Source of the DNA: Terebella lapidaria
Lineage: Eukaryota; Annelida; Polychaeta; Terebellida; Terebellidae
Length of the DNA: 64,000 bases
Assembly: GCA_949152475.1 (NCBI GenBank)
Contig: OX424569.1
Location: forward strand, 32,347,950-32,411,949
Reading direction: 5' to 3'
Part shown: one piece after another, positions 10,637-44,709 of the stretch
How positions within the stretch are numbered: position 1 is the stretch's first letter
Layout of the letters: each line of letters opens with the position of its first letter
Notes under the pieces: model-generated
What the model saw: only the letters and a program-made list of their open reading frames with translations
Database searches by the model: none
Told to the model about the DNA's origin: nothing
Position numbers and translations under genes: made by a program

Positions 10637-11379
10637 TGTAGTAATTTTAGCGACTGTAACTCTCGTCCCTCCCGCGCACTACACATTTCCACAACAAACA
10701 TTCATTCTACATGACTTACATACAGGACAGGTACATACTATACGATCACAAGCATAAACTCCATGTAGTCATGGTTACACACACAGGTCAAACCACGCAC
10801 CTGCGGCCCCACTTGTTCAGTACACTCGGCCCCGTTTACTCGGCCTTGACCTTCACATGCACTGACTTCTAAACATAGAACTTGACACACATACTCCACA
10901 CATCACGTGCACAGATACAGGCATTACAAGTATTGACACGAGCCGGGGAAACCCACTTTCCCGGTGACATCAGCGCATTGCAGCATACATTTGACCAATC
11001 ACAACACCGCATACACTTGGCGGGAAATTACACAAGCACATGATCCCTCGGCCCCAGTCATCTGCGCAGTTGAGTAGAAGTGTTCAATGAAGACGGTCGT
11101 ATTTTATATTGTAACAAGAAGAACGGCCGTGAAGTATAAGTGAATATATATAAAGATATACTGTGGATATACGTGATTGAAGGACTATATTAATATTGGA
11201 TATTCATTGACTGGGAAATCACCGACGTAGGTGTGAGCGGCCCCGATTGTGGTGTGTGCGTGAACATCGGCATTGTCACCACAATAAACAGTTTGAATTG
11301 AACTGCCGGCTTGTTGGTCTGTTAGCACGACATCACAGACATTCGGCTTGATACGGGCCAAAGAACCGTATTCTTCACA
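10637..11379 (+). repeat. 5' LTR of element 1
   Basis: It starts tgtagtaatt and ends ttcttcaca. Compared with 22886-23629 I count about five substitutions and one single-base indel. It contains a TATA-like box at 11145-11155 and an AATAAA at 11283-11288, so U3, R and U5 are probably all present. Confidence 0.95.
11145..11155 (+). promoter_or_regulatory. TATA-like box in the 5' LTR
   Basis: tatatataaag, about 130 bp upstream of an AATAAA signal (11283-11288). This spacing fits a U3 promoter with the poly(A) signal in or near R. The same pair occurs in the 3' LTR. Confidence 0.55.
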
Positions 11380-11380
11380 T

Positions 11381-11398
11381 TGGCGCCGTAGACCAGGA
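11381..11398 (+). promoter_or_regulatory. Primer binding site of element 1
   Basis: It reads tggcgccgtagaccagga, one base after the 5' LTR, and begins with TGG as expected for pairing with a tRNA CCA end. The corresponding site of element 2 (tggtgccgtgaccaggat) is closely similar. I cannot name the tRNA for this version. Confidence 0.7.
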
Positions 11399-11439
11399 TC
11401 TGAGCTAGTCTCGGATCTTCGACCCAGACCTGACCGGCA

Positions 11440-13044
11440 TTGATGGCATTGGCCCCGGGAGCCTCCCGCGGTGAGCCACTCGACCCCACGGATGACGAAG
11501 TGACGATCAATCCGAATCCGGCCCTCCGACCTTCCGGCCCTCGCTCAGTTGCCATGAGCGATTCGGTTCCACTGTCACAGGAGCAACAACCGTCCGGCCT
11601 TTTCGACTCCATCGGCGACCATTCGACCCTGAGATCGTCTTCGCCGCCCACCGACCTGGTGCAGGAGTTCCTAGACGAAGACCCGCTCGCGCCGTCACAT
11701 ACAGTAAGTGACATTTTGCGTGCACACGCTAGAGCGTACTCGGCCACGCCGGCTAGAGCGACCCAGAAAAGTGACTTTGCCGACAGAAACTATACGCGCT
11801 CACGTCAAAGAGCGAGCGTAGATCGTGATATCGACCCAGAACAATTAGCAGTGAACGTTCGGCCGGTAACCATAGACACGTCAATGGTTACGCACCCACC
11901 AAGTAACTCTCGGATACGACAGTGGGTTTGTCAGTCTGACAATGTTCCGGAACCGACCCCGCCGAATGCTTATTCGGCCAATCGACCCCTGGCGCCGCCC
12001 ATGACGCCGAGACAGCACGACCCCGCGCCAGAAATGTACTCACGCATACCGACCGAGCCAACGGTGGTAGAGTACACACGACCCAGCCAGACGGGAGCGA
12101 CATCCGAAGACATCCTGGCGACGACCGCTACCCGGATCGCGACGCCTCCACGACAACAACGACCCAGCGACACGATGACGGAATCTTGCGCCATCATGCA
12201 ACAAGCGCGACCCCGACAAGCACCCTCGACATCAAGTCGCCGACCCTGCGACCCCGACACGCCGACTTCCGACACACGCGCTCCCGCGCCGACCACGCAC
12301 CGACCATCGCCGACTACTGGAGAACAACCGCGCTTCGATCCGTCACAAGATCAAGTTGTGTCTGCTCCGGCAGAAAGTGTTGTGCCAATGATCGGACCTC
12401 CGATCTCACAATCAGTCGGAAACACCAACGGATATGGTGTACCGCCAGTCGGATACCCTGGCGCAACAAGCGGTGTTCCAAATGGAGTAGCTGTCGGATA
12501 CTATTCACCGCATGTCGGCTACGCGAACCCACCGCCCGGATATGGTGGCGTTCCCAGCGTGATAGCTGACACCGGCTATCATGGTGCACAACCCGGATTA
12601 GTGTACCATGGTGTATGCCCAGATGGATCGGTATACCGATATCCACCACCGGCTGTATTCCCACCCTCAGTCGGGAAACCATGGGTGACGCCTCCATACA
12701 GTCAACCGGCCCCTGCTGCACAAGCACCACACGACCCCAGTCACACGACGGCACCACCAGCCGCATCGCTCGCCGTCTCCGCGACGACAGCACCGACCGC
12801 CCCCGCTAACGCGACCCCGATCGGCCCAGATACGACGGCTCCGGCGATTTCGGCTGTTCCGACTCCGACGGCTACTGCAGCGACTGCATCAGTTGCGGTG
12901 AGTGTTGATACGCCCACGCCACAGAAACTCACGTCTGAGCCCCAAACGTTGGCTACGGCTAAAATGGCTCAATGGCGTGCGACCTTCAAGGAGGGCAATC
13001 TCACTCAATACATTCCGGTTTGTGCCCTCACTTTTAACAGTTAG
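11440..13044 (+). pseudogene. Gag N-terminal region of element 1, truncated
   Basis: This 534-codon frame starts 60 bp after the LTR at MMALAPGASRGEP. It is mostly low complexity, rich in P, T, S and A, with a glycine/tyrosine/proline-rich stretch near residues 310-410 (repeats of VGY and GYGG type). The last 20 residues, WRATFKEGNLTQYI, match the start of the capsid domain of element 2 (WRKRFNGDNADLEDYL). The frame then ends at TAG 13042-13044. The rest of the capsid core, about 150 residues in element 2, is missing, and sequence resembling its far end (SEALTAVLKVES) follows directly in the same frame. An internal deletion is therefore inferred. Gag would form the particle shell in the cytoplasm. 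Confidence 0.8.
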
Positions 13045-13188
13045 AGTGAGGCACTTACGGCCGTTCTCAAAGTAGAGAGTCGTCAGCAGAGGACAGCCAG
13101 AGATCGACACCGAGGCACGCGACGTGCCGACATTTCCGCAAGCGGATACGCGGAAGACGACCCTGTTAATGAAGAACTGTCTTGTGCC

Positions 13189-13665
13189 ATGGGACAAGTC
13201 ACTCAGGGGGAAACACTAACCCCAGAGCAAGTTGCGGCCTACTACGACCCTGCGGACAGTGACACTACCGGCCTACAAGGTTGCGACGAACATTCAGTGC
13301 CGGCCTGCTCACGCGAGTGGGTGGCTGAAGCTTTCCAGTGCGTCCTTAGTGACGAGAATGGACTATGTGAGGAAACGGCTATCTTTTCTGTCCTGCGAAC
13401 AACGGCCCCGATGAAAGGTGATCGACCCCCGCAACCCGGACGACCCATGGTTTGCTTCTTTTGCAAGAAGCCCGGCCATCGCTGGATGCGGTGCTTTCGG
13501 CTTAAGGATGTGCTAGTACGCAACGGCATGAAACCGCTAGCATGTCGGCCTAATGGTCCCGGTACTGACAGAAGGACAACTCAAGTGTTGTCAGTACCTA
13601 ACCAAACCGGTAACCAAACTAAACCGGCCCCACCAACACCTCCGACCCCGTCGTCAAACCAGTAG
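13189..13665 (+). pseudogene. Gag C-terminal region with CCHC zinc knuckle, element 1
   Basis: It lies in the same reading frame as the upstream gag piece and is separated only by the TAG. Residues 89-102 read CFFCKKPGHRWMRC, a canonical C-x2-C-x4-H-x4-C nucleocapsid knuckle used to bind genomic RNA. A proline/threonine-rich tail follows and ends at TAG 13663-13665. The ATG at 13189 is simply the first methionine after the stop; natural translation would come from the upstream gag start. Pol continues downstream in another frame. Confidence 0.8.
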
Positions 13666-13811
13666 GGGAAGGTGCTGAGGAGCAAGGGCCTTCCAGACAA
13701 CAGGACAACGTTCCCCGCTCCACACCCGCGGTTGTCACGACTACTGTACCGGTAACGACACCAATAACGACCCCGCAGCCGGCCCAGCCCACACCTCAGC
13801 TCCTGGAAGGG

Positions 13812-15467
13812 GTGTGTACGAAATGTCAAGCTCCGACCCCGAAACCGGCCTCTTTTCATGAAGGGGTGTCCGCACCGCGACCGCAACGGCCACCACGTGG
13901 AAACCGTCGTTCTGAAGGGGTGTCACCCCCGACCGCCGACGCCACCGGAACGGACAGCATGTCCGAGATTGAGTGGATCTCCGACGACGGAGGATTCTAC
14001 GCCTTTCCAAGTGGACCGGAATCCAAACTGCCGCCTCTTCACACACTCTTCAGGCCACCGCCAGACGACCCCGAAATTCCGGCTGTCATCAACAACTCCA
14101 GCGCCACCAATCACAAATGCTGGAAGTTGCCGGTACACGTCGGAAACAAGACGATAAAGGCTGTACTCGACTCCGGAGCGCAGATCTCCCTGCTCCGACG
14201 CGATCAGCTACGTCACGTCCCCGCCGACCAGCGACATTTGCGATCTACTTCGGCTATTATTCGTGACGTCACTGGACAGTCAAGCCCGATCGATAGACTG
14301 ATCGACCTTTCAATACAGGTTGGAACCAACCATATCGTAACCTTTTGTGTGGCTGACATACATGACGACATGATTCTCGGCATGAACTTTTTCCGGCAAG
14401 CTCACGCTGTAGTGAATTACGATGAAGGGACGATACAGGTATACAAGGAGATCCTGTTCGCACATAAAGACATTGAGGCCAACGTTGTCAGAATGGCCGT
14501 GCGAAGAGCTATTACCGTCCCCGCACGCAGCGAAGCAATAGTGGAGCTGGTCCCGACTTCCCGAGTCCGAGTTCGACAACACCCGAGGATAGCCCAGCCA
14601 CTTACGACCTTTCCCGAGGAAACCGACCTCATCATGGGGAGAACACTTACGACCCTGAATCGGCAGTGCGTAAAGGTGTCGGTAGTCAATCCAGCAGATA
14701 CCGGCATTACGCTCACCCGTTCCGACCCTGTCGCCATAGCAAGCCCTGTCGAAAGTGTCGTCGGAGCTCTGCCACGACCTGGAGAGGAGCCCGACCCGGC
14801 CACGGTAGACGCCAGTCACTACCGCGACCTACCGCCACATCTACAAGAAATGGTCGATCGCGCCGGACTAGCGCCGGAACAGCATCGGCGTTGCGCCAAC
14901 CTGGTTCACCAATACCAGGACACATTCATGCACCCAGACGGCCACCTGGGACGGACCCAAGTCGTCCAGCATAGGATCGACACCGGCAACTCGGCCCCGA
15001 TTCGACAACGACAGCGACGCGTCCCTCAGGCGCAGCAAAGCATCATCGACGAGGAGGTCGACAAGATGCTCCGCTTGGGGTGTATTGAGCCGTCAGATTC
15101 GCCCTGGAGCGCACAGGTAGTGCTCGTGCGGAAAAAGAACGGACAAGTACGCTTCTGTGTCGACTATCGGCTCCTGAATGACGTCACCCGCAAGGACTCA
15201 TACCCCTTGCCCAACATTCAGGACACTCATGACGCCCTGGCAGGCGCCAACTACTTCTCGGCCCTAGACCTGGCCTCGGCTACTGGCAGGTCGAAGTCGA
15301 CCCCAGCGACAGACCGAAGACTGCCTTCGCCACAAGGAAGGGACTTTACCAGTTTAAGGTCATGCCATTCGGCCTTAGCAACGCCCCGGCAACCTTCGAA
15401 CGGCTTATGGAGACCATACTCCGTGGTTACTTGTGGACCCGGTGTATGTGCTATCTCGACGACGTGA
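13812..15467 (+). pseudogene. Pol part 1 of element 1: aspartic protease and first half of RT
   Basis: The frame carries the retropepsin active site LDSGAQISLL at residues 119-128 and the ILGMNFF motif of the protease C-terminal half. A linker follows, then the RT start with EPSDSPWSAQVVLVRKKNG, RFCVDYRLLNDVTRKDSYPLP and YFSALDLAS. At that point (about 15278) the frame leaves the family pattern and becomes unrelated residues, while the expected GYWQV block is in the next frame. One missing base explains this. Pol is in a different frame from gag, so a frameshift or re-initiation would be needed to make it. The first ATG at 13812 is not necessarily the natural start. Confidence 0.85.
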
Positions 15468-17062
15468 TAGCTTACGGCAGAACATTTGATCAGGCACTCG
15501 CAAACCTGGAAGCGGTCCTGGATCGAATCAGATCGGCAGGCCTGAAACTTCAGCCCAAGAAGTGTGAGTTGTTCCAACGGGAAATCTTGTACTTAGGGTT
15601 CATAGTGAGCGGCCAAGGAATCCGAGTCGACCCCAACAAAGTTAAAGCCATCAGGGAATGGCCGACCCCGTGCGAGATCACCGACGTCAGGGCTTTCCTT
15701 GGTTTCGCCAACTACCACAGGCGATTCATCAAGGACTACGCTGAGATCGCTGAACCCCTCGTAGCGCTTACCCGAGGTGAATGCCACTTCACTTGGGGAC
15801 CGGCCCAGCGACGAGCTTTCCAGCGAATCCGCGACGCCCTCACCAAGGCGCCAAAGCTCGCTCATCCGACCCAGAATCCGGACGACTACTTCATCCTCGA
15901 CACGGATGCAAGCGGCTTTGCTGTGGGAGGCGCCCTCTCACAAAGGGTTAAGGGGAAGGAGATCCCCATCGGGTTCGCCAGTAAAACCCTTTCCCGGACC
16001 CAGCGGAACTATTGCACCACCTATCGGGAACTACTGGCAGTAGTTGAGATGGTGCAACACTATCGGCACTACCTCTGGGGTAGGAAATTCCTCCTCCGGA
16101 CCGACCATAGCTCGCTGAGGTGGCTGAAAAACTACAGCGACGCCGACGGCATGCTCGCTAGGTGGCTCGCCAAGCTACAGCAGTATGACTTTCGGATAGA
16201 GCATCGACCCGGTAAACTACACGGTAACGCCGACGGCTTGTCACGGTGCCACAGTTGCAAACACCAAGACTGTCCCGGACGACTCGTCACACCTCCGACC
16301 GACCCAGAAACAAGTTCCGGAGAACTTCCAGTTCGTCGGATAACTGTTGTTCCGACCCAGACAAGGGCAGACCTCCTGGACAGTGATTCGATAACATCAC
16401 CGGTCTTGCCCCAGCTAGTTTCGGCACGCCAAGTTGTTCGAGTCCGTGCTTTGGACGCCACACTTGATGGACAAAAGTGGCTTTCGGACTATTCGACCCA
16501 GGACATTGTCGCGGCACAGCAAGCCGACCCCAGCGTCGGAAAAGTGCGGCAATGGATGTTAGCCGGCACCAAGCCCGACTCTAGAGAAGTCGCCCGCCAA
16601 GGAGAGGAGGTAAAGACACTTGTTTCCCGCTGGAACCTCCTGGCGCTACAAGACGGAGTGCTGGTTCGACATATAAAGCCCGACCCCGCAGGACGGCCTG
16701 TGGTGCAAACCGTGCTCCCCGTAGCACTCAGGACACAAGTTCTGCACCAATTACACGACCTAAAGATTGTCGGACATCTCGGCATACAGCGTACCATCGA
16801 GAGAGTCAGGCGCCGATTCTACTGGCCCGGCTTGGCGCTGGACGTCGCCCGCTGGTGTGCCCGCTGCCCGCAATGTGTGACCCGCAAGGGTAAACCGGCC
16901 CCAAAAAGATCGCCCCTGACACAGCTACCAACAGGAGCGCCGTTCGACAGAATAGCGATGGACATCCTCGACACCCACAAGGTCACGGGAAGAGGCCATC
17001 GGTATGTCCTGGTCGTGTCGGACTACTTTACGAAGTACACTGACGCTTTTCCGCTACGGTGA
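15362..17062 (+). pseudogene. Pol part 2 of element 1: RT, RNase H and start of integrase
   Basis: After the frameshift the frame resumes with MPFGLSNAPATFERLM and the catalytic YLDD at residues 31-34. RNase H follows with FILDTDAS, TYRELLAVV, RTDHSSLRW and GNADGLSR. The integrase zinc-binding domain (LHQLHD...GHLG...CARCPQC) and the first catalytic aspartate region (FDRIAMDILDT) come next. The frame stops at TGA 17060-17062; element 2 has an arginine at the matching place, so CGA to TGA is the simplest cause. The reading frame continues unchanged after the stop. RT and RNase H copy the RNA genome in the particle. Confidence 0.9.
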
Positions 17063-17092
17063 CATACGGCCAAAAATGTTGCCGACACCCTG

Positions 17093-18193
17093 GTGAATCG
17101 GTGGATAGTCTACCACGGTGTCCCCAAGGCGATCCATAGCGATCAAGGTACTGAGTTTGAGTCGTCCCTGTTCCGACATGTTGTGCGTCTACTGGGCGCT
17201 AAGAAGATTCGTACGACCCCATACCGACCCCAGAGCGACGGCCAAGTTGAGCGATTCAACAGGACATTGCTCAACATGCTGAGTGCGTTCGTCAGTGATC
17301 GTGCAAACGATTGGGACTTGCACCTGCCATATGTGTTAATGGCCTATCGAACCTCAGTACACTCGTCCACGGGATGCACCCCGCATCTGATGGTGTATGG
17401 ACACGAGTGTAACTTGCCAGTCGACCTCATGTTTCCGACCTACGACCCTGAACCTCTACCTCCGTGTGGTCCGGAGTATGTGGAGTATTTGCGGCAAGCC
17501 ATCAGGACGGCCCACGGTTTCGCCCAAGACCATCTCGAGAAAGCGGCGATTCGGCAAAAGATGGGTTATGACGCCCACGCAAAACCACGACCCCAGTTTC
17601 AACCAGGCGAACTGGTCCGGTATTATTATCTGCAACTCACGCAGAATAATAAGTTCGCTCGGCCCTGGACTGGTCCCTGGAGGATCATCGACCGTGTAAC
17701 CGAGGTTGATTACCGAATCGCCCTGGTTTCCAACCCTCGGAACACTCGTGTTGTTCATCTGGATGTGCTCAAGCCATACGAAGGTGACAACCAAGCGGCC
17801 CACATCTACTCCGACCCTGTACGACCCACAACGTCGTCAAGCAAATCCGACCCAGAACAGTCACCCGACCCCATGGGACTTCTCAAGGAGTTCTATTACC
17901 CTTGGGAGGTAACAGTCCAAGATCGACATACCGATTCAGACCAAACAGCAGAGTCTGATTCGCAAACGACCCAGGATCGTCAATCGCGATCTCCGACTTC
18001 ATCCGGCTCAAGTCGACATCGGCAACGGAAAAGATCACGCAGATCAAGTTCCGACACTCCAAAACCGGCACGCAAGACGCGCAGGCAAAAGCCTGTGGTA
18101 TCTTCCGACCCTGAGACAAGCAAGGCTACGCCCCCGCCTGCACGACCAAATCGACCCAGACGCAACGCACGCAGACCGGCCCGCTACAGATAA
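17093..18193 (+). pseudogene. Pol part 3 of element 1: integrase core and C-terminal domain
   Basis: It is in the same frame as the preceding segment after the single TGA. The second and third catalytic residues are D17 (HSDQGTEFE) and E53 (QSDGQVERFNR), with 35 residues between them, giving the classic D,D35E. A GPY/F-type module follows (KFARPWTGPW), then VVHLDVLKPYEG, then a long charged, serine/arginine-rich tail ending RRPARYR. The ATG at 17093 is only the first one after the stop. Integrase inserts the cDNA into host chromatin. The basic tail is longer than in element 2. Confidence 0.9.
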
Positions 18194-19776
18194 CCCCGGC
18201 CTTGTTATCTGATTGATATCATTGATGATGAATTATGCATGTCTAATGGACTATGATATCATGTCTTTCCCCGCAATAATATATTATATTACAATAACCA
18301 TATATGCATTTAATATGTACAAGATGTCAGTGAGGCAAATTCGATATATACACACTAGATATGATATTATAATTATGATGCTGGTGAAAAGTTGGTTGCA
18401 TTATGATATGTGTTTCGACCCCGTATAACATGTACCATTGATCAAGGCGTATGTTACGCAATGACTAAGATTATCATGTAAAGCTTCCATCCATGTGCCA
18501 GCCGAAGAGGATAATAATAACCAGTCACACCGTGAGTAAGGCCACTTAGTTGTCGAAGAGGTGATAGTGTGATTCGTTCTGGAGTATGCGTCGACAGAGC
18601 CTCTACTCACTCCATGTAATATTCGGAGGAACGGCCCAGTGGTACGGGAACCAGTCACTACATAGCTATCATACCAAGATGCGGCCTGTCACCAAATTCA
18701 TCACCCAAATATTCAAAGCGCCGCGGTGTGACCGACCCAGTTCATTGCAATTTTGACCCTACAATATTTGCGGCCCCGTCGTCTTGTGAACTGGCTGAAA
18801 ATGAACGGAACGATGTCCGCCCCTGTGAGTGATTGATATTCATATCTCAGCCTTTAATAACTGTGTGTCGTCTGTGAAACAGCAATTCGACCCCGTAGTT
18901 TATTGTGCGCTAATTTGTGGGAGAAGGAATGATAGACTGATTAGTTCACAAGGCACGCACGAGCGCTAATAAACATTTTAGCTGTTTACAGCACCCACAT
19001 GAAATCTCCCCTGATAAAGACAATAGTGAGTCGTCGGGCAAAAAGAGCCCAGTAATTCGAACAGTCGACTAGTATAAATAGACAATGATTCGGAACGAGT
19101 TATCCAGGGGACGGCAGATGGACATAAGGAAATCTGGACAGTGTGAGGACACCCCTACTGTCGTAATGGACTGACCCAAGAGGTCAGAGAAGGTTCGCTC
19201 CGCGTTTCCTTGACGACGGCCCCGCCTTGCTGTGTGTACGCTTGGAACAATGATACATAGCGTAAAGACGTTTTCTATACAGATAGAGAGCGCCTCCCGG
19301 CCCAGTTCTAAGAATCGAGATGCTGTCAGCATCTTTGTGTACGGCAGTGAAGATTAGCAGCAATCAGGTCACTTGCGCCTGAGACTTTGAAGAAGAAGGA
19401 CGGTCTTAAAGTTTCGGACACACGGGAATACGAACCATTGCTAAAAAAACTGTGCAAATCGTAGATAATTGACGGCTTATAAACTTTAACATTGTTAAAT
19501 CCTGGTCGCAAGACTTGAGAAATAATTCGGCTTTGATTATCGGCATTTGAACTAGGCTGGTTTTGAAGAAATCCGGACTCTGTTACAACCAGCCTAGTCA
19601 GTACTTGGGAAGTACTTCGACTTGATTTCGGCCCGTCAGCATGGCTGACAAACCTGTCCGATAATATCACCGTCCAAGTAGTCGACACCGGGGATGAATC
19701 GGATCATCCCATAATCGTCCCTGACAACGAAACTTCGTCCGGCCCCGACTCGCAGCCTGAGCAGCGCGATCCAGTC
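18194..19776 (+). other. Non-coding interval between pol and ORF3 in element 1
   Basis: About 1.6 kb without a supported frame, more AT-rich than the flanking genes. It contains eight plus-strand CGRCCC words (near 18417, 18632, 18733, 18771, 18889, 19216, 19298 and 19629) and, by my scan, none in the opposite orientation. Upstream of 19777 the ORF3 frame is open from 19567 without an ATG. A pyrimidine-poor but AG-ended site such as cagcctagtcag (about 19581-19600) could be a splice acceptor for a subgenomic mRNA. Confidence 0.6.
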
Positions 19777-21003
19777 ATGCTCAGCGACACGGCGAGTGGA
19801 TCGGAGAAAGGAGCGCGACCCAAAACGGCCCGGGACAAGTTGGCGCAACGAGGAGAGCGCCATACACCGAGCCCGACTCCGGACGACATTTTCAACGTCG
19901 ACCCCGAACGCTTCCGCCGACTCGAGGAGGGCGGAAGTATCGTCCAGCGTGCGATTGAAGCACGACAAGCGGCCCAGGAGGCTCAGCGAGTCGCCACGGC
20001 GAGCCGCCAACCCGACCCAACGAATCAAGTGATCGCCCCGATCGCTCCGGCCCCGACTTCACCCGCTTCCAGTTCAGCGGTAGCACGACCTGCGGCCTCC
20101 CGTTCTCCAAACAAGAGAACTTACACTTCTTTTAAGAAGAAACATGGAGCGGGAGCCCGTTCGACATCTAGCAGTTCGTCACGCTCTAGTGGCGGATCTG
20201 CTATTCCGACCTCGACTTTCCGTCGGCAAGTGGCGGAACTGATGGAACTGGTGCCACCTCCCGTGACACCTTACGGAACTCGGCCCATAGACTGGAACAA
20301 GGTTCCACTCAGCAAGCGAAATCGAAGCGCTGGATACGGCCATATCCACAATTTCGATGAGCAGTCGACCCTGTCGGAGGGAAACCTCCTCACGTTTGCT
20401 CCGCTACAGCGTGGAGACGGTCGCTACGAGTGCCCCTTCTGCATCGGCGAAGAGGAAGGAGCAGGAGAGCGACAGTGGTCCTCCGTACCACGACGCGGAC
20501 CTTTCCGGACGGCCCAGAACCTCGACGCACACGTTTTGGCGTACCATTTCCCGTTCCTACGCTACTTCGTGTGCCCGGCCCGCGACAACTTCCGGACATT
20601 GGCCCAGGAGGAGATGTTCCGGCACCTGTCCCAAGCGACCCCGCAACACGTGACGTCGTTCCCATTCTACCAGGAGGGACGACTATCGGCATCCGGCCCC
20701 ATGCTCGTCAGGTTCGCGCTGCGCTGCAGAGTCGACATGCAGCCGAACCCGAATTATCGGCCCCCAAGAGTTCCGGCCAACATCCCGATCTTCAGGAGGG
20801 ATGTTAACACCGTCCTGACGTTCGGCATCTGGCACATGGCGCCAGAACTTTTCAACCAATATCCGCCCAACTCGGCCCCGGAAGTGCAGCAGGTACTCCG
20901 TCGACTGGAGTACAATCATGCTTCGACCCCTGCGGATGAAATTTGGCTAACCCGCATGGTCAGTGACATTGAAACCATGAACACGCGGGTTCGAGTACGA
21001 TGA
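19777..21003 (+). CDS. ORF3 of element 1, first part: C2H2-like zinc-finger protein
   Basis: 408 codons in the position where env would lie. No signal peptide, membrane segment or fusion peptide is visible. Residues 1-150 are charged, then Ser/Pro-rich with basic patches (FKKKHG, residues 119-124). A zinc-finger-like block follows: C219-x2-C222, H252-x4-H257, then C266 inside YFVC, with H283 and H291 further on. The second finger has arginine where element 2 has its second cysteine, so it may be degenerate. The phrase LDAHVLAYHFPFLRYFVC matches LSRHVAGYHYPWMKLFVC in element 2 in spacing and sense. TGA at 21001-21003 ends this part, but the same frame stays open beyond it into the next ORF. 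A nucleic-acid-binding role is inferred; I recognise no named family. Confidence 0.75.
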   Translation: MLSDTASGSEKGARPKTARDKLAQRGERHTPSPTPDDIFNVDPERFRRLEEGGSIVQRAIEARQAAQEAQRVATASRQPDPTNQVIAPIAPAPTSPASSSAVARPAASRSPNKRTYTSFKKKHGAGARSTSSSSSRSSGGSAIPTSTFRRQVAELMELVPPPVTPYGTRPIDWNKVPLSKRNRSAGYGHIHNFDEQSTLSEGNLLTFAPLQRGDGRYECPFCIGEEEGAGERQWSSVPRRGPFRTAQNLDAHVLAYHFPFLRYFVCPARDNFRTLAQEEMFRHLSQATPQHVTSFPFYQEGRLSASGPMLVRFALRCRVDMQPNPNYRPPRVPANIPIFRRDVNTVLTFGIWHMAPELFNQYPPNSAPEVQQVLRRLEYNHASTPADEIWLTRMVSDIETMNTRVRVR

Positions 21004-21051
21004 CCCAGCACGATCTTCTTTGTCCGGCCCATCAACTACCAGACGACATCG

Positions 21052-22374
21052 GTGAGCACGGCGGAGGAAATCCCGACAACGACCACCGGTGTTTCGGCCT
21101 CGGCAGTCGTCACTACGGCTTCGTTCGCGTCAGTGGCATCGCCAGCGACAACCCGACCGGTCACCACAGTGACATCTTCGACCCCGTCCAGAGCTCGGCC
21201 TTCGGACATCATACCCAGGCGGATGGTTGTGGAGCGACCCACGGCTTCCAACGTCACGGACTACCAAGTCCGTGAGGGATTGGTCCCTCCACCTGAGGAG
21301 TATCCGCCACTCCCAAGTCGACCCCTGAATACCACACCGGTATCTACATCAACCGGCAAGGAGACTCCTGAACCAAAGAGTCCAGCTGAGGATCGGCCGC
21401 CTCCACTCAGGGAGATCGCACCCGGGTCTCCTGTACGTACGTCCCCGACACAGTTTTCGACCCCGGAATCCTCACCAGAGCCTTCGCGACGGATGGTGGA
21501 ACCCGTCCCGCTCCCGCCGTACCTCACGGAGGAAGTGGAGCCTCTGCGCTCCGTCCCGACACGCGGCACTGACAGAGACCGACCCCGACTTCAAGTAGAC
21601 GACCCTGAACAACTCGAGTCGCTCCACAGGGATCTCGACGAGCGTCTCCCGTTCCATGGGTCCGGCGAGTTTGCGGCCGATTTCCAGTTCCTGCGGCAAC
21701 ACAGCAGACGTCTGGCGATCCGCTCGCTTCCCGGCCTGCAGGCGCTACCCGGCCAGAACCCCGACCTCAGGGACTTCCTGCGAGATGAGGACGCCCAGCG
21801 GCTCCCGAACTACCTCGGGTTTCACGAGGACTTTTGGACGGCTCGTCTCGAACAGGCCGCCCATAACGCCGACCCCTTGCTCCTGCCGTCAGAACCGGAG
21901 GAGCATCTCCCGACCCTGTCTCTCGCCCGCGCTGATGATTTAGCGCACCAGTACTTGCGACTAATTCGTCGGGAGTACCTGTCGGCCCTGGACCACCGCA
22001 TCAGGCAGGCAGAATACAACGGCCTGTCTGTCGGCTTTGGGATGGGAGCTCTGCATGAGCGCCACCAGCCCACGTTCCCGGACACCCTGTCCGAGGAGAA
22101 TCTGCGGCTTCGAGTCCGTGTGACTCAGTTGGAGGATCAAGTCGCCCACCAACGACAAGAGATCACTCGACTTCAAGCGACTTCGACCCCGACGCCATCG
22201 GAAGCACAAGCTCCGTCGACCCCGACCACACCGACCATCCCGGGGGAGTTGTTGGCCACAATCGTGTCCATCCTGCCCAGACTGCCCCCAGACGAACAGC
22301 TACAGCTGATGCGGCAGGCATCGCCAGCGGCCCCGCCTCCTCCCGCCAGCAGGCGCGAACGGGAGGGCAAGTAA
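21052..22374 (+). CDS. ORF3 of element 1, second part: proline-rich and coiled-coil region
   Basis: 440 codons from its first ATG, in frame with the zinc-finger part and separated only by the TGA at 21001 and 16 open codons. The two were probably one protein of about 866 residues. Residues 1-170 are Thr/Pro/Ser-rich with EEYPPLPSR at 83-91. Residues 185-340 form a predicted helical domain (HRDLDERLPFHG, DLAHQYLRLIRREYLSALDHR). Residues 346-375 are heptad-like (LSEENLRLRVRVTQLEDQV), suggesting a coiled coil for self-association. The C-terminus ends PPPPASRREREGK. The ORF of element 2 at 32174-33205 has the same order: helical domain, heptad segment, proline-rich tail. Function unknown. Confidence 0.7.
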   Translation: MSTAEEIPTTTTGVSASAVVTTASFASVASPATTRPVTTVTSSTPSRARPSDIIPRRMVVERPTASNVTDYQVREGLVPPPEEYPPLPSRPLNTTPVSTSTGKETPEPKSPAEDRPPPLREIAPGSPVRTSPTQFSTPESSPEPSRRMVEPVPLPPYLTEEVEPLRSVPTRGTDRDRPRLQVDDPEQLESLHRDLDERLPFHGSGEFAADFQFLRQHSRRLAIRSLPGLQALPGQNPDLRDFLRDEDAQRLPNYLGFHEDFWTARLEQAAHNADPLLLPSEPEEHLPTLSLARADDLAHQYLRLIRREYLSALDHRIRQAEYNGLSVGFGMGALHERHQPTFPDTLSEENLRLRVRVTQLEDQVAHQRQEITRLQATSTPTPSEAQAPSTPTTPTIPGELLATIVSILPRLPPDEQLQLMRQASPAAPPPPASRREREGK

Positions 22375-22885
22375 AGTTTCGGCCCAGAACTGTTCGGCCC
22401 CTTGAATACGGCCCCAGCTAGCGACCAGTCATCCTGGTCACGGACTCGTATGTTGTAAATAGTTGTACATATATTTTATCCTAGTCACGGCATTTCGTTT
22501 TTATACATGTGATTTAGTTAAGTTTAATCATCATTTTATTTCAGTTCAATAGACTCTTAAAGTTTTAGTTCCGTTTCGCTTTGAAACGTCGAGGAGTTTT
22601 GTTTATCATTCCATATTTTACATTCCATTCATCATCGGTCATTGTTATGAATGTATTTGTATATGTATCATCGTAGAGACTGTTGACGGACTGACTGCTG
22701 ACGTTTATTTTGACGGTTAGGAATTTTTATTGTATGTAGTGTTTTCTCATTTCGCGCGGCGTGTGTGTGTGAGTGTTTTTGGGTTTGACCTTTAGGACTT
22801 CTTAGCTTTTTATTGTTTAGTTTTTGGCGACGGTAGGGTCCGGGGAGGGTAATTCCGAGGGCGTAGAATTAATGAAGGGGTGTTA
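22375..22885 (+). other. 3' non-coding region of element 1 with polypurine tract
   Basis: The first 60 bases hold three CGGCCC words. The rest is T-rich. The polypurine tract aatgaagggg (22871-22880) lies five bases before the 3' LTR and would prime plus-strand DNA synthesis. Confidence 0.7.
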
Positions 22886-23629
22886 TGTAGTAATTTTAGC
22901 GACTGTAACTCCCGTCCCTCCCGCGCACTACACATTTCCACAACAAACATTCATTCTACATGACTTACATACAGGACAGGTACATACTATACGATCACAA
23001 GCATAAACTCCATGTAGTCATGGTTACACACACAGGTCAAACCACGCACCTGCGGCCCCACTTGTTCAGTACACTCGGCCCCGTTTTCCTCGGCCTTGAC
23101 CTTCACATGCACTGACTTCTAAACATAGAACTTGACACACATACTCCACACATCACGTGCACAGATACAGGCATTACAAGTATTGACACGAGCCGGGGAA
23201 ACCCACTTTCCCGGTGACATCAGCGCATTGCAGCATACATTTGACCAATCACAACACCGCATACACTTGGCGGGAAATTACACAAGCACATGATCCCTCG
23301 GCCCCAGTTATCTGCGCAGTTGAGTAGAAGTGTTCAATGAAGACGGTCGTATTTTATATTGTAACAAGAAGAACGGCCGTGAAGTATAAGTGAATATATA
23401 TAAAGATATACTGTGGATATACGTGATTGAAGGACTATATTAATATTGGATATTCATTGACTGGGAAATCACCGACGTAGGTGTGAGCGGCCCCAGTTGT
23501 GGTGTGTGCGTGAACATCGGCATTGTCACCACAATAAACAGTTTGAATTGAACTGCCGGCTTGTTGGTCTGTTAGCACGACATCACAGACATTCGGCTTG
23601 ATACGGGCCAAAGAACCGTATTCTTCACA
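22886..23629 (+). repeat. 3' LTR of element 1
   Basis: 744 bp, near-identical to 10637-11379. The single-base length difference lies in the gtttac/gttttcc stretch around 23088. Confidence 0.95.
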
Positions 23630-23633
23630 ATAT

Positions 23634-24276: not shown

Positions 24277-24540
24277 ATCTATTTTCAGGTTAATTTTGGG
24301 GAATTCATGAGGGGTGCCACTAGTGGGGCAGGAAATGCTCACTCTTTCCGGAACACCTGATTTCACCTCCTAATGGCCAATTACTAGGGTTCATGAGTTT
24401 CCTTGTCATTTTAGTTTTCTCTCACTTCGTATGCCTGATATGACTTTCTGTCCCCGGACTATGAGATTGGATAACGGACCCTGTTTTGTTTGCTCGGAAT
24501 ACTTAATACTGGGTATTGATTCCACGTCTATTCATTAGAT
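24277..24540 (+). mobile_element. PLE 3' tail
   Basis: Near-mirror of 8045-8290, with cactagtggggcaggaaatg, gttccggaacacc-like text and gagattggataacgga. A third, isolated copy of this tail lies in reverse at 61126-61290. Confidence 0.8.
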
Positions 24541-28133: not shown

Positions 28134-28140
28134 CTGCGAA

Positions 28141-30910: not shown

Positions 30911-31646
30911 TGTAAAGTTATTGACTACCGTCCGCTCTTCGGGATCCTCGAGGATAGTCCTCTCTCATCCGAGTCCTTGCGGACGCGCATCCGCTATTCC
31001 GGATCCTTGCGGCAGGGCCGCTCACCGGAGGTCGCGGCGGACACGGTAACTACTTCAGCATTAACGGTAACCAGGTAACAGCCCACCCGACACTCCCAGG
31101 CCTACGGACACCGTTCAGAAACTAGTTCATCCCTACGGTGTTAACTGGCGGGGCCTGGCGAGCCGCGGTCTGCCTCGGGGACGGAACCCCGTACAGTCCG
31201 ACATGCTGGCCAGAGCCTCTGTCACACGTCCCGGGAAGGGAGAGAGCTGGCGATCCACAGGGCCGAAGGCCCCCGAGTCAGCAACTTGTCTCTCCCAGCC
31301 CGGGCCTCCCCATGGAAATCGTCCCCAGGGCTCTAGGAGCCCACTACTCACAAACAGGGAACACAAAGCTCATGGCGAGCCTTGCGTGCGTCCTGTCTCT
31401 CGATCTTGGACAATCTCCCCGATCGAGTCGCTTCCAGTGTATATATAATACACCAGAAACTGTAGGGCGCACGCGAGGTTTAATCGATCCATTGTTATAG
31501 TTTACTGGAGCGTAAATTACAATACGTCGCCGTGGCAACGCACGCTCGAACGGAGCATGTCAAAACAAGGCCAAGTACGAAAAGGCCACATAAATGGCAT
31601 TTATGTTTACAATCACCTGCCGCGTGCTTAGGGCAAAATCGCCACA
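30911..31646 (-). repeat. 3' LTR of element 2 (left end on the plus strand)
   Basis: Read in element sense it starts tgtggcgatt and ends ctttaca. It appears identical, or nearly so, to 43970-44705; short frames translated from the two copies are the same. A TATA-like tatatataata lies near 31440-31450. Confidence 0.95.
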
Positions 31647-31660
31647 TTACCCCCTTCTTA
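31647..31660 (-). promoter_or_regulatory. Polypurine tract of element 2
   Basis: In element sense taagaagggggtaa, directly against the 3' LTR. This is the usual place and make-up of a plus-strand primer. Confidence 0.8.
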
Positions 31661-32173: not shown

Positions 32174-33205
32174 CTAGCCTTCCCCCATCGTCATGGGCTC
32201 CTCATCCGTGCCGCCTGTCTTGGGGTCTGGCGGCGGTGACGAGTCCCTACGCCGCGGAAGCAGCGGAGCCGGCATAGTGAAAGCCGGCTGCACGGGCGGA
32301 TGAGGTAGGCCCGGTGGAGCTTGCAGGGGCTTTTGTGGTGAGCCCTGCAATCCGGGTCCTGACGGAGCCATCACGACGGAGGCCGGTAGAGAGGTCGCGC
32401 CGAGATCTGCAATGGCGCGGAACATCTCCACCGTATCGCGGGTGCGCTGTGGACCGGCCATCCGTTCTCCCCACACCTGGACTAGGTATGGGTAGATGGC
32501 CAGCTCCAAAGCGGCATCCGCGCGCCGGAGAGCCGCCTGGTTCAGGGCGGACGACTCGGGGTCATCGACGCCCTGGAGTAGGCGAGTCCGAGCGGCCTCG
32601 GCTTCGTCAAGACGACGCCGTAGCTGCTCATTCTCAGCCTCCAGGTGCTCCATCCGTGCGGCTACCTCTGGGGCGGGGGCGGACGCCCCGGACTGCTCGG
32701 CAAGAGCGGCGGTCCGACCCTGGTCGAACGCGCGCCGCTCAATGACGGCCGACAAAGTCCGGTAGCTCTCTAGGCTCCGCCGGGTGCCTTCCATGAGGCC
32801 CTGGTCGTATGCGAGATCGCATGCGACACGGGAGGCCTCGGCGCGGCACCGGCTGAACCGATCCAGAGAGCTGTCCATCTCCGCCACAAGGTACTCCGCC
32901 GCTCGGGTGAGTCGACCCCGCTGGGGGTGATCCAAGGGGTGCTCCTCCCGAGCGCGGACCAACGCGGCTACACCTGCGGACCCCAAGTCACGAATGGCTC
33001 GGGGCACCGGCAGGTTCACCAACGCCGGGTCACCGGGGATCCGGTCCATACCATCGCGACGATGGCCGACCGCCTGGCCTACAGACTCGCGGAAAGTCTC
33101 GTAGACGCTGGCGGCGAAAAAGCCTCCGGCGTACGTCCGCCGTGGCGTCGAGGGGGTCCAAGTCCAGGGAGGCGGTGCTTTGCCATCCCGCGGACGTCCC
33201 CTCAA
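32174..33205 (-). CDS. ORF3 of element 2, second part: helical and coiled-coil region
   Basis: 343 codons from its first ATG, overlapping the end of the zinc-finger ORF in another frame by 176 bp. From about residue 25 (AGGFFAASVYETFRESVG) it reads like folded, helical protein. Residues 100-175 are helix-rich (AAEYLVAEMDSSLDRFSRCRA). Residues 180-210 are a strong heptad segment (MEHLEAENEQLRRRLDEAEA). The tail is Pro-rich and ends EEPMTMGEG. The order matches 21052-22374 of element 1. The first 20 or so residues are probably an out-of-frame artefact, because the upstream frame has plausible sequence there. A frameshift around 33100-33140 therefore splits one original ORF. Self-association is inferred. 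Confidence 0.7.
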   Translation of the reverse strand: MRGRPRDGKAPPPWTWTPSTPRRTYAGGFFAASVYETFRESVGQAVGHRRDGMDRIPGDPALVNLPVPRAIRDLGSAGVAALVRAREEHPLDHPQRGRLTRAAEYLVAEMDSSLDRFSRCRAEASRVACDLAYDQGLMEGTRRSLESYRTLSAVIERRAFDQGRTAALAEQSGASAPAPEVAARMEHLEAENEQLRRRLDEAEAARTRLLQGVDDPESSALNQAALRRADAALELAIYPYLVQVWGERMAGPQRTRDTVEMFRAIADLGATSLPASVVMAPSGPGLQGSPQKPLQAPPGLPHPPVQPAFTMPAPLLPRRRDSSPPPDPKTGGTDEEPMTMGEG

Positions 33206-35612
33206 CTACCAACGAGGACGCGGACGCCGACCTCGAGAGAAGTACCGCACGTCCGCTACTGCTCGCAACCGAGGGAGTCACGCGTGGGGTCCTTGGCGGG
33301 ACCACCGACGCGGTACTCGAGGAGGCGGAGGTGTCTGCCACCACCCGTCCCTCAGACGGACCCGTGGGTACCGTCACCTCGAGCAAGCCCGGGAAATCCT
33401 CCTGAGTCAGCGCACCCGGAGCCTGCAGGGGCGTCGTCCCAGCCGGAGCCTTTCCGGCGGACGAGCTCTTCCCCTGAGTCTTCGGCTGGGGGCGCGGCTT
33501 AGGAGAAGCCACTCGTGTCTTGGCCGCGATCTGCGGCATCTCCGACACGATCATGGTCACCCGGTGCCGTTCTTCACCTGCCTGGGTCGCCGGCGGTTGA
33601 CGGACAGCCTCTGCTGCTGTCCGGGCGGCTTCCGCCGCCTGGTACTCCGCCGGGGTCTGGCCCATTGACGCCGTCAGGCGAGCGGTGTAGCTCGAGCCCG
33701 CGGACACAATGCCAGACTCCTTCCAGGCATCGTCCATGACGCGCTGTGCAAAGCGCCATGGACCCCAGTGAAAGAATCGGTGCTTCACCGTTCCTGACGT
33801 AGTCATGAACGATGCCACCCTCGGTGGAATGTATCCAAAATTGAATACAGGCCCCACTTCATCACCAACGGTGTGAAGTCCCTCACCGCGGTGTGCACCC
33901 GAGCGGTGATTATTAAGGGCCTCCAAACTGGCGAAAAATCGTTGCTGAGGTCTACTGGAGTAGCACCTCTTGCAAACGAACAATTTCATCCAGGGGTAGT
34001 GGTACCCCGCAACATGTCGACTCAAGTGGTCGTAGGGAGGATACCTACGATCCCGGTTGAGCGCAAGGTGCGGGTCCTCATACCCGTCCAGGGATTCCGG
34101 ACAGAGTTGGCATATTACACCCTCCTCTGTCTCGGGCGGCAACCCGACACGCTCCTCGTCCGTGAGTGGACGAGGCCGTGTGAAAGGCGTGTCGGCCGCT
34201 GCGCCGGCCGCCGCTGTGCGGCGCCCTTGCGGATCCCTGCCATACCGCGGGAGGAACATGTGTCCCTGACGGACTCCAGGGAGTTCGGGGCCCATTTCGG
34301 CCCGCAGCCTCTGGATAGAGGGCTGCTCCGAGGACGACCGTTTCTTCTTTTTGGCCGCCCCCGAACGATTCTCCGACCTGGTTTGTCGGGGCACACTCTT
34401 CCCGCGTGGGGGCGCGGCCCTCTGTTGCTGCGCAACGAAGGACCGCCGTCCCGCTTCCAGTGCGGCGTCAGACAGGTGGACCCCGTCTTTCTCCGCGCGC
34501 TTCCGGAGGAGTTCTAAGCGAAGATCTCCCTCCTTCGGCACGGGACGCCCTCGGTCCACTGGACTCGACCCCACCTCCGCAGCTCCGGTAGGTTTCTTGG
34601 TACCGGAGGGAGAAGAAGAGGAGGTTCCTTTCGGAGCCTGGATAGGCACCCGCTTACTGGAACCTCCCGCGCCCGGGCCGGATCCCGCGGAGGCGCCGCC
34701 CGCACCAGATCCCGAGGGATTAGGCGTCTTGGCGTCTCCGGGTTTGGCGGAGGACCCTTTCTGGCCGCCTGGCTTAGGCGCCAGTGGCTGAGGTCCTCCG
34801 GACTTCGATCCGGTTTGAGGCGAGGGGCCGCCGGACTTCTTTTTCCGGTGCGGCCGCTTCTTCTTCTTTTTCTTCGGAGGCGAGGAGGCCGGGTCCGGGT
34901 CGGATCCGGCCTCAGATTGCCCGCGCTCAGAGGCTTCCAGCTCTTGCTGGGCTCTCCACTGCTTCTGGGCAATCTCCCGGGCTCGACGGCGAGTACGCCT
35001 AGAGACGGGCGATGTAAACCCGTCATCTCGGTTCTCGGTCTCCTTCGAGCCAGACTCCTGTTCCTGAGGCGGCGCTTGGGATGCGGCTTCCTCAGCCGCG
35101 TCAACCTGCTCCGCCCAAGTCCCAGGGGCCTTCTGGTCGTGCGGACCAGACTCCGCAGGTGCGGACACCGAGGAGTTCTCGGCGGAACCGGTGTCCGGAC
35201 GGCTACGGCCATCTGGACGAGTTTCCGCACGAGTACTCTCATCCGGACCCAAAGACGCAAGCATCTCCGGGTGCGGATGCAACTCAATATCCACATCCAC
35301 GAGTCCCGCACCACCGCAGTCCATCACCTCTTCCATACGAGGAAAAGGCGACGGATTCAAGAGCTGCTCGGCGCCTGGCGTGGCCGAGTCACTCTCTGCG
35401 GGGCGGTCCTCCGCGACCTCGCTCTCGGTTCCTGTGTAAGAACCAGAGCCGGAGCTGGATTCCGCAGAACCCATCTCTTCGCCTTCGGAGACATGTTCAT
35501 TGTCCACATCCTCAGGCCTAGCTAGGGGTCTCGAGTACACACTAGTGCACTCTAGAGACCCCTCCTCCCTTCCCACATCACTACCCCAGCCGTCACTTGA
35601 TTCTGACATCAA
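33030..35612 (-). CDS. ORF3 of element 2, first part: basic and C2H2 zinc-finger protein
   Basis: 860 codons in the env position, without signal peptide or membrane segment. Residues 1-200 are acidic and Ser-rich. Residues 245-258 are a strong lysine-rich nuclear-localisation-like patch (PPKKKKKKRPHRKKK), and a second KKKKR lies near 421. Low-complexity Gly/Ser/Pro sequence fills 260-350. Two C2H2-type fingers follow in tandem: C501-x2-C504...H533-x4-H538, and C547-x2-C550...H569-x4-H574. The block FFHWGPWRFAQRVM comes after them. LSRHVAGYHYPWMKLFVC corresponds to the finger region of element 1. The last 30 or so residues lose the pattern, consistent with a frameshift into the next ORF. A nuclear, DNA- or RNA-binding protein is inferred; I know no named family with this layout. 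Confidence 0.75.
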   Translation of the reverse strand: MMSESSDGWGSDVGREEGSLECTSVYSRPLARPEDVDNEHVSEGEEMGSAESSSGSGSYTGTESEVAEDRPAESDSATPGAEQLLNPSPFPRMEEVMDCGGAGLVDVDIELHPHPEMLASLGPDESTRAETRPDGRSRPDTGSAENSSVSAPAESGPHDQKAPGTWAEQVDAAEEAASQAPPQEQESGSKETENRDDGFTSPVSRRTRRRAREIAQKQWRAQQELEASERGQSEAGSDPDPASSPPKKKKKKRPHRKKKSGGPSPQTGSKSGGPQPLAPKPGGQKGSSAKPGDAKTPNPSGSGAGGASAGSGPGAGGSSKRVPIQAPKGTSSSSPSGTKKPTGAAEVGSSPVDRGRPVPKEGDLRLELLRKRAEKDGVHLSDAALEAGRRSFVAQQQRAAPPRGKSVPRQTRSENRSGAAKKKKRSSSEQPSIQRLRAEMGPELPGVRQGHMFLPRYGRDPQGRRTAAAGAAADTPFTRPRPLTDEERVGLPPETEEGVICQLCPESLDGYEDPHLALNRDRRYPPYDHLSRHVAGYHYPWMKLFVCKRCYSSRPQQRFFASLEALNNHRSGAHRGEGLHTVGDEVGPVFNFGYIPPRVASFMTTSGTVKHRFFHWGPWRFAQRVMDDAWKESGIVSAGSSYTARLTASMGQTPAEYQAAEAARTAAEAVRQPPATQAGEERHRVTMIVSEMPQIAAKTRVASPKPRPQPKTQGKSSSAGKAPAGTTPLQAPGALTQEDFPGLLEVTVPTGPSEGRVVADTSASSSTASVVPPRTPRVTPSVASSSGRAVLLSRSASASSLVVEGTSAGWQSTASLDLDPLDATADVRRRLFRRQRLRDFPRVCRPGGRPSSRWYGPDPR

Positions 35613-44705: not shown

Positions 44706-44709
44706 TAAC

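What the first reader, a model, noticed from the sequence alone, without database searches (positions are those of the whole stretch)
19777..22374. Env-position ORF of element 1 encodes a zinc-finger/coiled-coil protein, not an envelope
Between integrase and the 3' LTR lies about 2.6 kb of open frame (one TGA only) with C219-x2-C222...H252-x4-H257, then a second, partly lost finger, and a heptad segment further on. There is no signal peptide or membrane span. Element 2 has the same order, and LDAHVLAYHFPFLRYFVC has a clear counterpart there. Conservation between two distinct elements while flanking linkers diverge points to selection on the protein. Gypsy elements with env or Gag-derived extra ORFs are known; I do not know one with this pair of domains.
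Basis: partly seen in the sequence, partly recalled or inferred. Interest (0 to 1): 0.88.

Follow-up and report, generated by a model that had tools for sequence, protein, structure and literature searches.

The report
Zinc-finger gene in an envelope-less retrotransposon
A family of jumping genes in an animal genome carries, where a virus would keep its envelope gene, a strongly conserved zinc-finger protein gene, and one of the two elements in this window is also peppered in one direction with about a hundred copies of a short conserved motif that such a protein might recognise.

Summary
Two Ty3/gypsy elements (E1 plus strand, E2 minus strand) each carry a long ORF between integrase and the 3' LTR, with a zinc-finger block and a C-terminal helical/coiled-coil part. 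No membrane span stands out; Pfam, PDB and protein-database searches found no relative. The window copies are decayed. In the same 762-Mb genome, 81 of 102 listed E1 places show a 937- or 946-codon frame without a stop, and 8 of 20 fetched E2 stretches have finger and coiled coil in one frame. Thirteen intact E1 copies give pooled Ka/Ks 0.086; uncorrected the ratio is 0.097, against 0.16 for the RT-to-integrase block of the same copies. E1 and E2 detectably share only the finger block (hhalign E 1.4e-4, probability 53%). Beyond the finding: E1 carries 106 copies of CGRCCC(H)G on its sense strand (about 22 expected) and none antisense. They lie in LTR, gag, pol, ORF3 and non-coding parts, in all codon phases, and are conserved at silent sites. 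E2 shows nothing comparable. Most likely ORF3 is an accessory protein that binds the element's own nucleic acid; that it binds this motif, as RNA, is inferred.

The parts
10637..11379 (+). E1 5' LTR
   Evidence: 99.19% identical to 22886-23629
22886..23629 (+). E1 3' LTR
11440..13044 (+). E1 Gag-position open frame, 534 aa; no Pfam match
13453..13494 (+). E1 single CCHC zinc knuckle (CFFCKKPGHRWMRC)
   Evidence: pattern match
13812..18193 (+). E1 protease, RT, RNase H, integrase in broken frames
   Evidence: Pfam for 13812-15467; tblastn of E2 pol, 57% identity over 793 columns from RT into INT
19567..22374 (+). E1 ORF3 frame (window copy: start region decayed, TGA at 21001-21003)
20431..20547 (+). 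E1 finger C-x2-C...H-x4-H; its four C/H residues invariant in 12 natural copies
22081..22182 (+). E1 coiled-coil helix
   Evidence: AlphaFold2 helix, residues 128-161 of window:21700-22374
10637..23629 (+). 110 sense copies of CGRCCC, mostly followed by HG, 0 antisense, spread over the whole element (106 when one LTR is left out)
30911..31651 (-). E2 3' LTR
   Evidence: 99.87% identical to 43970-44710; 40 of 1943 candidates scored in the genome, all 42 listed matches 99-100% identical
43970..44710 (-). E2 5' LTR
42745..43854 (-). E2 first frame (369 aa), Gag N-terminal part by position
   Evidence: no Pfam match
37902..42788 (-). E2 Gag C-part with CCHC knuckle (seen in the translation), protease, RT, RNase H, integrase
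   Evidence: Pfam; nearest solved structures are Ty3
33030..35612 (-). E2 ORF3, N-terminal and finger part
33891..34112 (-). E2 tandem C2H2-like fingers
32174..33205 (-). E2 ORF3, coiled-coil part, in another frame in this copy (also in L044 and L045)

Best explanation
ORF3 is an accessory gene of an env-less Ty3/gypsy retrotransposon lineage. It encodes a soluble, probably nuclear protein with a zinc-finger nucleic-acid-binding head, long low-complexity linkers and an oligomerising helical/coiled-coil tail. It most likely acts in trans on the element's own genomic RNA: many molecules coat the sense RNA, and in E1 they do so by recognising the dispersed motif CGRCCC(H)G. This would let the element's unspliced RNA be told apart from host RNA and be exported, protected or packaged. 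Shown: the frame, the selection (E1), the finger residues, the predicted helix, the lack of membrane spans, the motif, its one-strandedness and its conservation. Inferred: binding, that the bound form is RNA, nuclear location, oligomerisation, and that ORF3 rather than Gag is the reader of the motif.
For: Selection on ORF3: Ka/Ks 0.086; uncorrected ratio 0.097 against 0.159 for the RT-to-INT block of the same 13 copies, four of which cover under half of that block. Finger C/H residues invariant in 12 natural copies. Finger block is the only part still alignable between E1 and E2. Basic clusters in natural E2: KKKKKKR, RKKK, KKKKR; E1 has KRTYTSFKKK, seen by eye. C-terminal 34-residue helix. 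Motif: CGACCC 66 vs 12.3 and CGGCCC 40 vs 9.6 under an order-2 Markov model, reverse complements 0 and 0; CGnCCCnG 78 vs 9.3, z=22, shuffle maximum 7.1. Present in all regions and all codon phases (18, 38, 26 of 82). Above synonymous-codon shuffles (500 each): gag 18 vs 5.3, RT-RH 11 vs 3.2, INT 15 vs 2.9, ORF3 15 vs 2.1 and 13 vs 3.2. Four-fold sites inside motifs vary 0.025-0.037 against 0.10-0.11 base-matched, for five reference copies, p 0.0002-0.001. Retention against the window copy: 176 of 178 in the INT-ORF3 non-coding gap, 778 of 800 in ORF3, 137 of 141 in RT-INT. Strict orientation favours a single-stranded target (inference). A precedent for an env-position nuclear protein needed for genomic RNA export is Cer1 CERV (PMC10309623, abstract and passages).
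Against: No binding data. E2, which has an ORF3 of the same kind, shows no comparable motif, so the link between ORF3 and motif rests on one element. E1 Gag has its own CCHC knuckle, an equally possible reader. In the LTR (44 of 47) and 3' non-coding part (27 of 30) the motif is kept no better than GC-rich control hexamers (0.929 each), although per-base mismatch is lower inside it (0.021 vs 0.061; 0.037 vs 0.064). In PR-RT the count, 8, does not exceed the shuffle maximum of 9. Predicted RNA accessibility is only slightly above same-composition controls (0.082 vs 0.063, p=0.001), and hairpin-loop placement does not differ. The script's pattern for basic clusters found none in E1. Sites were compared over copies of one family.
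Confidence: 0.4

Rival explanations
1. ORF3 acts on DNA: a transactivator or anti-silencing factor that binds the integrated element, as VANC does in Arabidopsis VANDAL elements; the E1 motif is its DNA target.
For: C2H2-like fingers are commonly DNA-binding (general knowledge). VANC is element-encoded and binds a short motif accumulated in its own elements (PMC5735166, passages). The motif also occurs in the LTR, 4 per LTR.
Against: The motif is on one strand only, 106 to 0, which a double-stranded DNA binder does not need. It is dispersed with random-like spacing (CV 0.93, random 0.98) through coding and non-coding parts, whereas VANC motifs are described in non-coding tandem repeats.
Confidence: 0.2
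2. The E1 motif is a set of dispersed RNA packaging signals read by Gag (capsid or CCHC knuckle), and ORF3 has a separate job.
For: E1 has a Gag-position CCHC knuckle. Dispersed packaging signals read by coat protein are described for several RNA viruses and HBV (PMC6281560, PMC5431903, PMC8677749: abstract beginnings in the search listing). One-strandedness fits an RNA target.
Against: E2 also has a CCHC knuckle but no such motif. I recall no retroelement with about one 8-nt site per 110 nt under constraint.
Confidence: 0.25
3. A host RNA-binding protein reads the motif (export, splicing or small-RNA avoidance), and ORF3 is unrelated to it.
For: The core is C-rich, a type bound by several host RNA-binding proteins (recalled). 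No step ties ORF3 to the motif.
Against: E2 in the same genome lacks it and the window outside the elements has 5 and 4 in 37.2 kb, so a general host requirement is not evident.
Confidence: 0.1
4. ORF3 is a highly diverged envelope, a Gag duplication or a captured host gene.
For: Env position between integrase and 3' LTR; homology searches of this kind miss very diverged relatives, and the collections are probably poor in animal sequences.
Against: No membrane span or signal-like N-terminus; both elements already have a Gag-position CCHC; no Pfam, PDB or protein-database match.
Confidence: 0.05

Closest known systems
CERV of C. elegans Cer1 (Ty3/gypsy)
   Same: Long ORF in env position of a Ty3/gypsy element, no Env likeness, nuclear protein with a basic NLS and predicted leucine zipper (PMC10309623, abstract and passages)
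   Different: No zinc finger is described for CERV in the passages read; CERV is made from a five-exon mRNA and its N-terminal half shares peptide sequence with Gag; no dispersed motif is mentioned in the passages read; no direct sequence comparison was made here
Additional ORFs of plant LTR retrotransposons (Grande GENE23, Retand and others)
   Same: Extra protein between pol and 3' LTR, nuclear in the Grande case (PMC7264820, passages)
   Different: Those cases are antisense ORFs; ORF3 here is sense; the review's main text does not contain 'zinc finger' or 'coiled-coil'
VANC of VANDAL DNA transposons
   Same: Element-encoded factor plus short motif accumulated in the element (PMC5735166, passages)
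   Different: DNA transposon (recalled); motif shown to be bound as dsDNA and found in non-coding tandem repeats; here sense-strand only, dispersed, coding and non-coding
Dispersed RNA packaging signals of RNA viruses and HBV
   Same: Many short sites of one kind along one genomic strand (abstract beginnings)
   Different: Read by coat protein, as loop-presented motifs in the HBV case; here a strict 6-8-nt word with no hairpin-loop preference

Membership tests
Ty3/gypsy LTR retrotransposon | Order PR-RT-RH-INT with Ty3-like RT, between direct LTRs | tested here: met
   Pfam order on E2 (the protease matches lie below Pfam's cut-off in E2 and above it in E1), best solved structure Ty3-G Gag-Pol E=1.7e-105, LTR pairs
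Retroviral or errantiviral envelope | Signal peptide and membrane span | tested here: not met
   Maximum 19-residue hydropathy 1.23 and 1.16; N-terminal 60 residues 0.20 and -0.68
Retroviral or errantiviral envelope | Sequence match to a known env family | tested here: not met
   No env family in Pfam up to E=10
CERV-type export factor | Env-position ORF of a Ty3/gypsy element unlike Env | tested here: met
CERV-type export factor | Nuclear location and need for genomic RNA export | not testable with these tools
   Only basic clusters seen (E2; E1 by eye)
VANC-type anti-silencing factor | Motif in non-coding tandem repeats, bound as dsDNA | tested here: not met
   Motif sense only, dispersed, in coding and non-coding parts; binding not testable
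C2H2 zinc-finger protein | C-x2-C...H-x4-H conserved | tested here: met
   Four residues invariant in 12 E1 copies; spacing is longer than classical and no Pfam zf-C2H2 match was found
C2H2 zinc-finger protein | Zinc-finger fold | tested here: inconclusive
   AlphaFold2 model of the E2 block from a two-row alignment had mean pLDDT 32
Dispersed packaging signal system | Sites bound by Gag or capsid | not testable with these tools
   No binding data

The most novel reading that the evidence does not exclude
E1 is a two-part self-recognition system that I know from no other animal retrotransposon: an element-encoded zinc-finger/coiled-coil protein that reads about one oriented 6-8-nt tag per 110 nt along the whole sense RNA. 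Each family of the lineage may evolve its own finger-tag pair.
Probability: 0.25. Interest if true: 0.92.

Novelty: new variant of a known kind. Interest (0 to 1): 0.74.

Why it matters
Env-position ORFs without env likeness are known in many LTR retrotransposons and mostly unexplained. Here one is shown to be under protein-level selection at least as strong as that on the RT-to-integrase block, in a multi-copy family. E1 also offers a putative cis target (106 oriented, conserved sites) that makes the function directly testable by binding. If the two belong together, it is a new way for a genomic parasite to mark and recognise its own RNA.

Tried and rejected
Envelope, Gag duplication and host capture were considered and found unsupported (see rivals). 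Codon usage as the cause of the motif was rejected: all three phases, non-coding sites, synonymous shuffles. Base composition was rejected by the order-2 Markov model. Hairpin-loop presentation of the motif was not supported. Regular spacing was not supported (CV 0.93 vs random 0.98, p 0.34). An E2 counterpart motif was sought. In gapped words only two AT-rich words (9 copies each, z 8.0 and 7.7) pass the shuffle maximum of 7.2; against synonymous shuffles the best (CCGCAC z 4.6, the palindrome TCCGGA 18 vs 7.0, z 4.0) stay below the shuffle maximum of 5.7 (the both-strand figures printed there count the palindrome twice). None is claimed. In one search the column printed as control diversity was wrong (it printed site numbers); one search replaces it. 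The finger block gave no usable structure model and no fold search was run. Searches of proteins and viral contigs gave nothing. A wider family census in the own genome could not be done because the genome search stayed busy.
Full report
Setting. The window lies in a 762-Mb genome of 438 contigs, unnamed here. It holds two LTR retrotransposons: E1 on the plus strand (LTRs 10637-11379 and 22886-23629, 99.19% identical) and E2 on the minus strand (LTRs 30911-31651 and 43970-44710, 99.87%). Pfam gives protease, RT, RNase H and integrase for E2 in Ty3/gypsy order, the protease below cut-off. The best solved structure for E2 pol is the Ty3 Gag-Pol (E=1.7e-105). E1 and E2 pol align at 57% identity over 793 columns from RT into integrase, so they belong to one lineage.

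The observation. Between integrase and the 3' LTR, E1 has the open frame described, with one TGA and the stated cysteines and histidines. E2 has the counterpart on the minus strand. The finger blocks align: BLASTP E=3e-5 over 37 columns, profile-profile E=1.4e-4, probability 52.7%, 128 columns, 23% identity. This alignment reaches beyond the finger into a second block (YxPPRV ... GxW). The C-terminal parts do not align by sequence, although both contain helical or heptad segments. In E1 the segment is predicted as a 34-residue helix, block pLDDT 79-90 for residues 131-160, in a model of mean pLDDT 52.5. The best heptad score is reached by 2% (E1) and 5% (E2) of 200 shuffled proteins; the best-scoring window in each lies in the helical part before the leucine-zipper-like segment.

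The window copies are decayed. A search of the own genome with the E1 piece listed 102 places, all that were scored of 1741 candidates. By my count of that table, 82 of 102 show an open frame of 937 or 946 codons, 81 of them without a stop inside the match. In natural copy L005 the first ATG of the frame lies 65 codons before the codon that matches 19777. The TGA position is also a stop in L004 and in none of the other 26 held copies besides the window's own, L001. For E2, 20 stretches beside near-identical LTRs were fetched. Eight have finger and coiled coil in one frame: L032, L033, L037, L038, L041, L046 (1115-1205 codons), L031 (761) and L040 (849). L044 and L045 have them in different frames, as the window copy does. 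L030, L039, L043 and L047 hold only parts. Six do not match. So the split of the window's E2 is not unique to it, but one-frame copies are the more frequent.

Selection. Over 13 E1 copies with an uninterrupted frame, pooled Nei-Gojobori Ka/Ks is 0.086. By block: N-terminal 0.079, finger 0.071, post-finger 0.067, linker 0.117, helical 690-842 0.043, coiled coil 0.185, tail 0.061. Uncorrected, the ratio is 0.097; the two shifted forward frames give 2.0 and 3.7; the reverse frames give 1.5, 0.18 and 3.5, the low one being the frame whose wobble sites coincide with those of ORF3 (that reason is my inference); all 28 copies, the window's included, give 0.11, and the 15 interrupted ones 0.125. The RT-to-INT block of the same 13 copies gives 0.159; four of these copies cover under half of it and one has a stop in it. 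The finger C and H residues are invariant in 12 aligned copies. For E2 the ratio is 0.47 over six near-identical copies, with 100-codon blocks between 0.23 and 1.1: too little variation to say more.

Not an envelope. Hydropathy shows no membrane span or signal-like start in natural E1 or E2 proteins. Pfam at E up to 10 shows two weak matches over the E1 coiled coil (E 0.1 and 0.62) and none for E2. PDB by sequence shows nothing and by profile one match at E=0.39. The protein database gave nothing for three queries (in two only the about 8000 candidates sharing most words were scored) and viral contigs nothing for two. The E2 finger block could not be modelled (mean pLDDT 32). These are absences in collections that are probably poor in animal sequences.

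An unexpected second part. Counting words in E1 showed a motif, CGRCCC followed usually by C/A/T and G. In one LTR plus the internal region there are 106 sense copies and 0 antisense. Expected under an order-2 Markov model: 12.3 and 9.6 for the two sense forms, and 4.4 for the antisense form, with zero in 1.3% of shuffles. CGnCCCnG has 78 copies against 9.3, z=22, while shuffles reach at most 7.1. Single substitutions at positions 1, 2 and 4 to 6 fall to or near background; C or T at position 3 (4 vs 1.5, 5 vs 0.8) and other bases at position 8 (A 18 vs 3.6) are somewhat tolerated. The motif lies in LTR, gag, protease-RT, RNase H, integrase, the non-coding gap, ORF3 and the 3' non-coding part, in all three codon phases (18, 38, 26 of 82). 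In five of six frames it exceeds all 500 synonymous-codon shuffles; in the sixth (PR-RT, 8 vs mean 3.1) it does not exceed the maximum of 9. E2 (8 and 11 on the two strands) and the rest of the window (5 and 4 in 37.2 kb) do not have it.

The motif is conserved apart from the protein. With sites defined in one copy and variation measured in the other 12, four-fold sites inside the motif vary 0.025-0.037, against 0.10-0.11 for base-matched and 0.076-0.106 for trinucleotide-matched sites outside, for five choices of reference (p 0.0002 to 0.01). Compared with the window copy, the motif is kept at 176 of 178 in the non-coding gap, 778 of 800 in ORF3, 137 of 141 in RT-INT, 74 of 79 in gag, 44 of 47 in the LTR and 27 of 30 in the 3' non-coding part (27, 27, 13, 7, 13 and 13 copies given, several with partial coverage, one gag copy nearly uncovered and one LTR copy uncovered). 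GC-rich control hexamers are kept at 0.795, 0.812, 0.867, 0.889, 0.929 and 0.929 in the same order; they had to match exactly, while either R was accepted for the motif. Per-base mismatch inside and outside the motif is 0.0066/0.039, 0.017/0.058, 0.0095/0.027, 0.017/0.026, 0.021/0.061 and 0.037/0.064. So the constraint is clear in gap, ORF3 and RT-INT, moderate in gag, and in LTR and 3' part seen per base but not against GC-rich hexamers. Predicted RNA accessibility is slightly above that of same-composition words (p=0.001; unpaired share 0.54 vs 0.47, p=0.014), with no preference for hairpin loops.

How it may work. A protein with a finger head and an oligomerising tail, plus many oriented copies of one short word on the sense strand, suggests cooperative coating of the element's own RNA. 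Strict orientation is what a single-stranded reader needs and a double-stranded DNA reader does not. The nearest precedent for ORF3 is CERV of Cer1, an env-position nuclear protein required for genomic RNA export, seen around linear fibrils thought to be genomic RNA (PMC10309623, abstract and passages). The nearest precedent for a factor with accumulated motifs is VANC (PMC5735166, passages), which differs in being a dsDNA system with motifs in non-coding tandem repeats. Dispersed packaging signals read by coat proteins are the other model (search listing with abstract beginnings only). The weak point is E2: same kind of ORF3, no such motif. Either E2 has lost or not evolved one, or its word is harder to see, or the motif is read by Gag or a host protein.

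Literature. Five searches aimed at extra ORFs, zinc fingers or LTR elements of molluscs and annelids and one aimed at an element-encoded factor with a short sense-strand motif (no paper) showed no description of this pair in their listings, which show titles and abstract beginnings of the best papers only. Term searches in the main text of the mollusc and annelid LTR surveys found no extra ORF or zinc finger (PMC6238403; PMC8556966); in the Lamellibrachia survey extra ORFs are mentioned as background (PMC8220671, passages). The library is open-access only, so this does not show that nothing is in print.

Noticed in passing
L005 and 12 other natural E1 copies, ORF3 versus RT block: Synonymous divergence is about twice as high in ORF3 (pS 0.171) as in the RT-to-INT block (0.079) of the same copies, and varies along ORF3 (0.068 in codons 376-480, 0.345 in the coiled coil), which suggests a mosaic history. 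Some of the RT rows cover only part of the block.
   Followed up: partly
10400-10636 and 23632-24537: E1 sits next to reverse-transcriptase-like sequence (frame 23632-24276, RVT_1 match below cut-off, E=0.0027; GIPMGTNCAPLLADLF looks Penelope-like, recalled); an inverted related copy of 23807-24537 lies at 8042-8787.
   Followed up: partly
51421-52272: Frame matching rhodopsin-type 7tm receptor (PF00001, E=1.7e-17), directly followed by a long 43-bp tandem array from about 52104.
   Followed up: no
28140-28875: Up to five units spaced 140-162 bp with TGACGAGTCCGAAA, hammerhead-like at first sight, but no Rfam match at gathering score.
   Followed up: partly
11381-11400 and just inside the E2 5' LTR (below 43970): Both elements have a related primer-binding-site-like stretch (TGGCGCCGTAGACCAGGATC / TGGTGCCGTGACCAGGATC), possibly complementary to the 3' end of tRNA-His (recalled, not tested).
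   Followed up: no
E2 LTR, genome wide: 40 of 1943 candidates were scored; all 42 listed matches to the E2 LTR are 99-100% identical, so E2 looks very recently active.
   Followed up: partly
25094-25780 and 57499-58552: Related repeat families with 134- to 258-bp spacing, in opposite orientation at the two places.
   Followed up: no
33030-33205, L044, L045: The split of E2 ORF3 into two overlapping frames recurs in two of the fetched copies; whether it is one inherited change or several was not examined.
   Followed up: no
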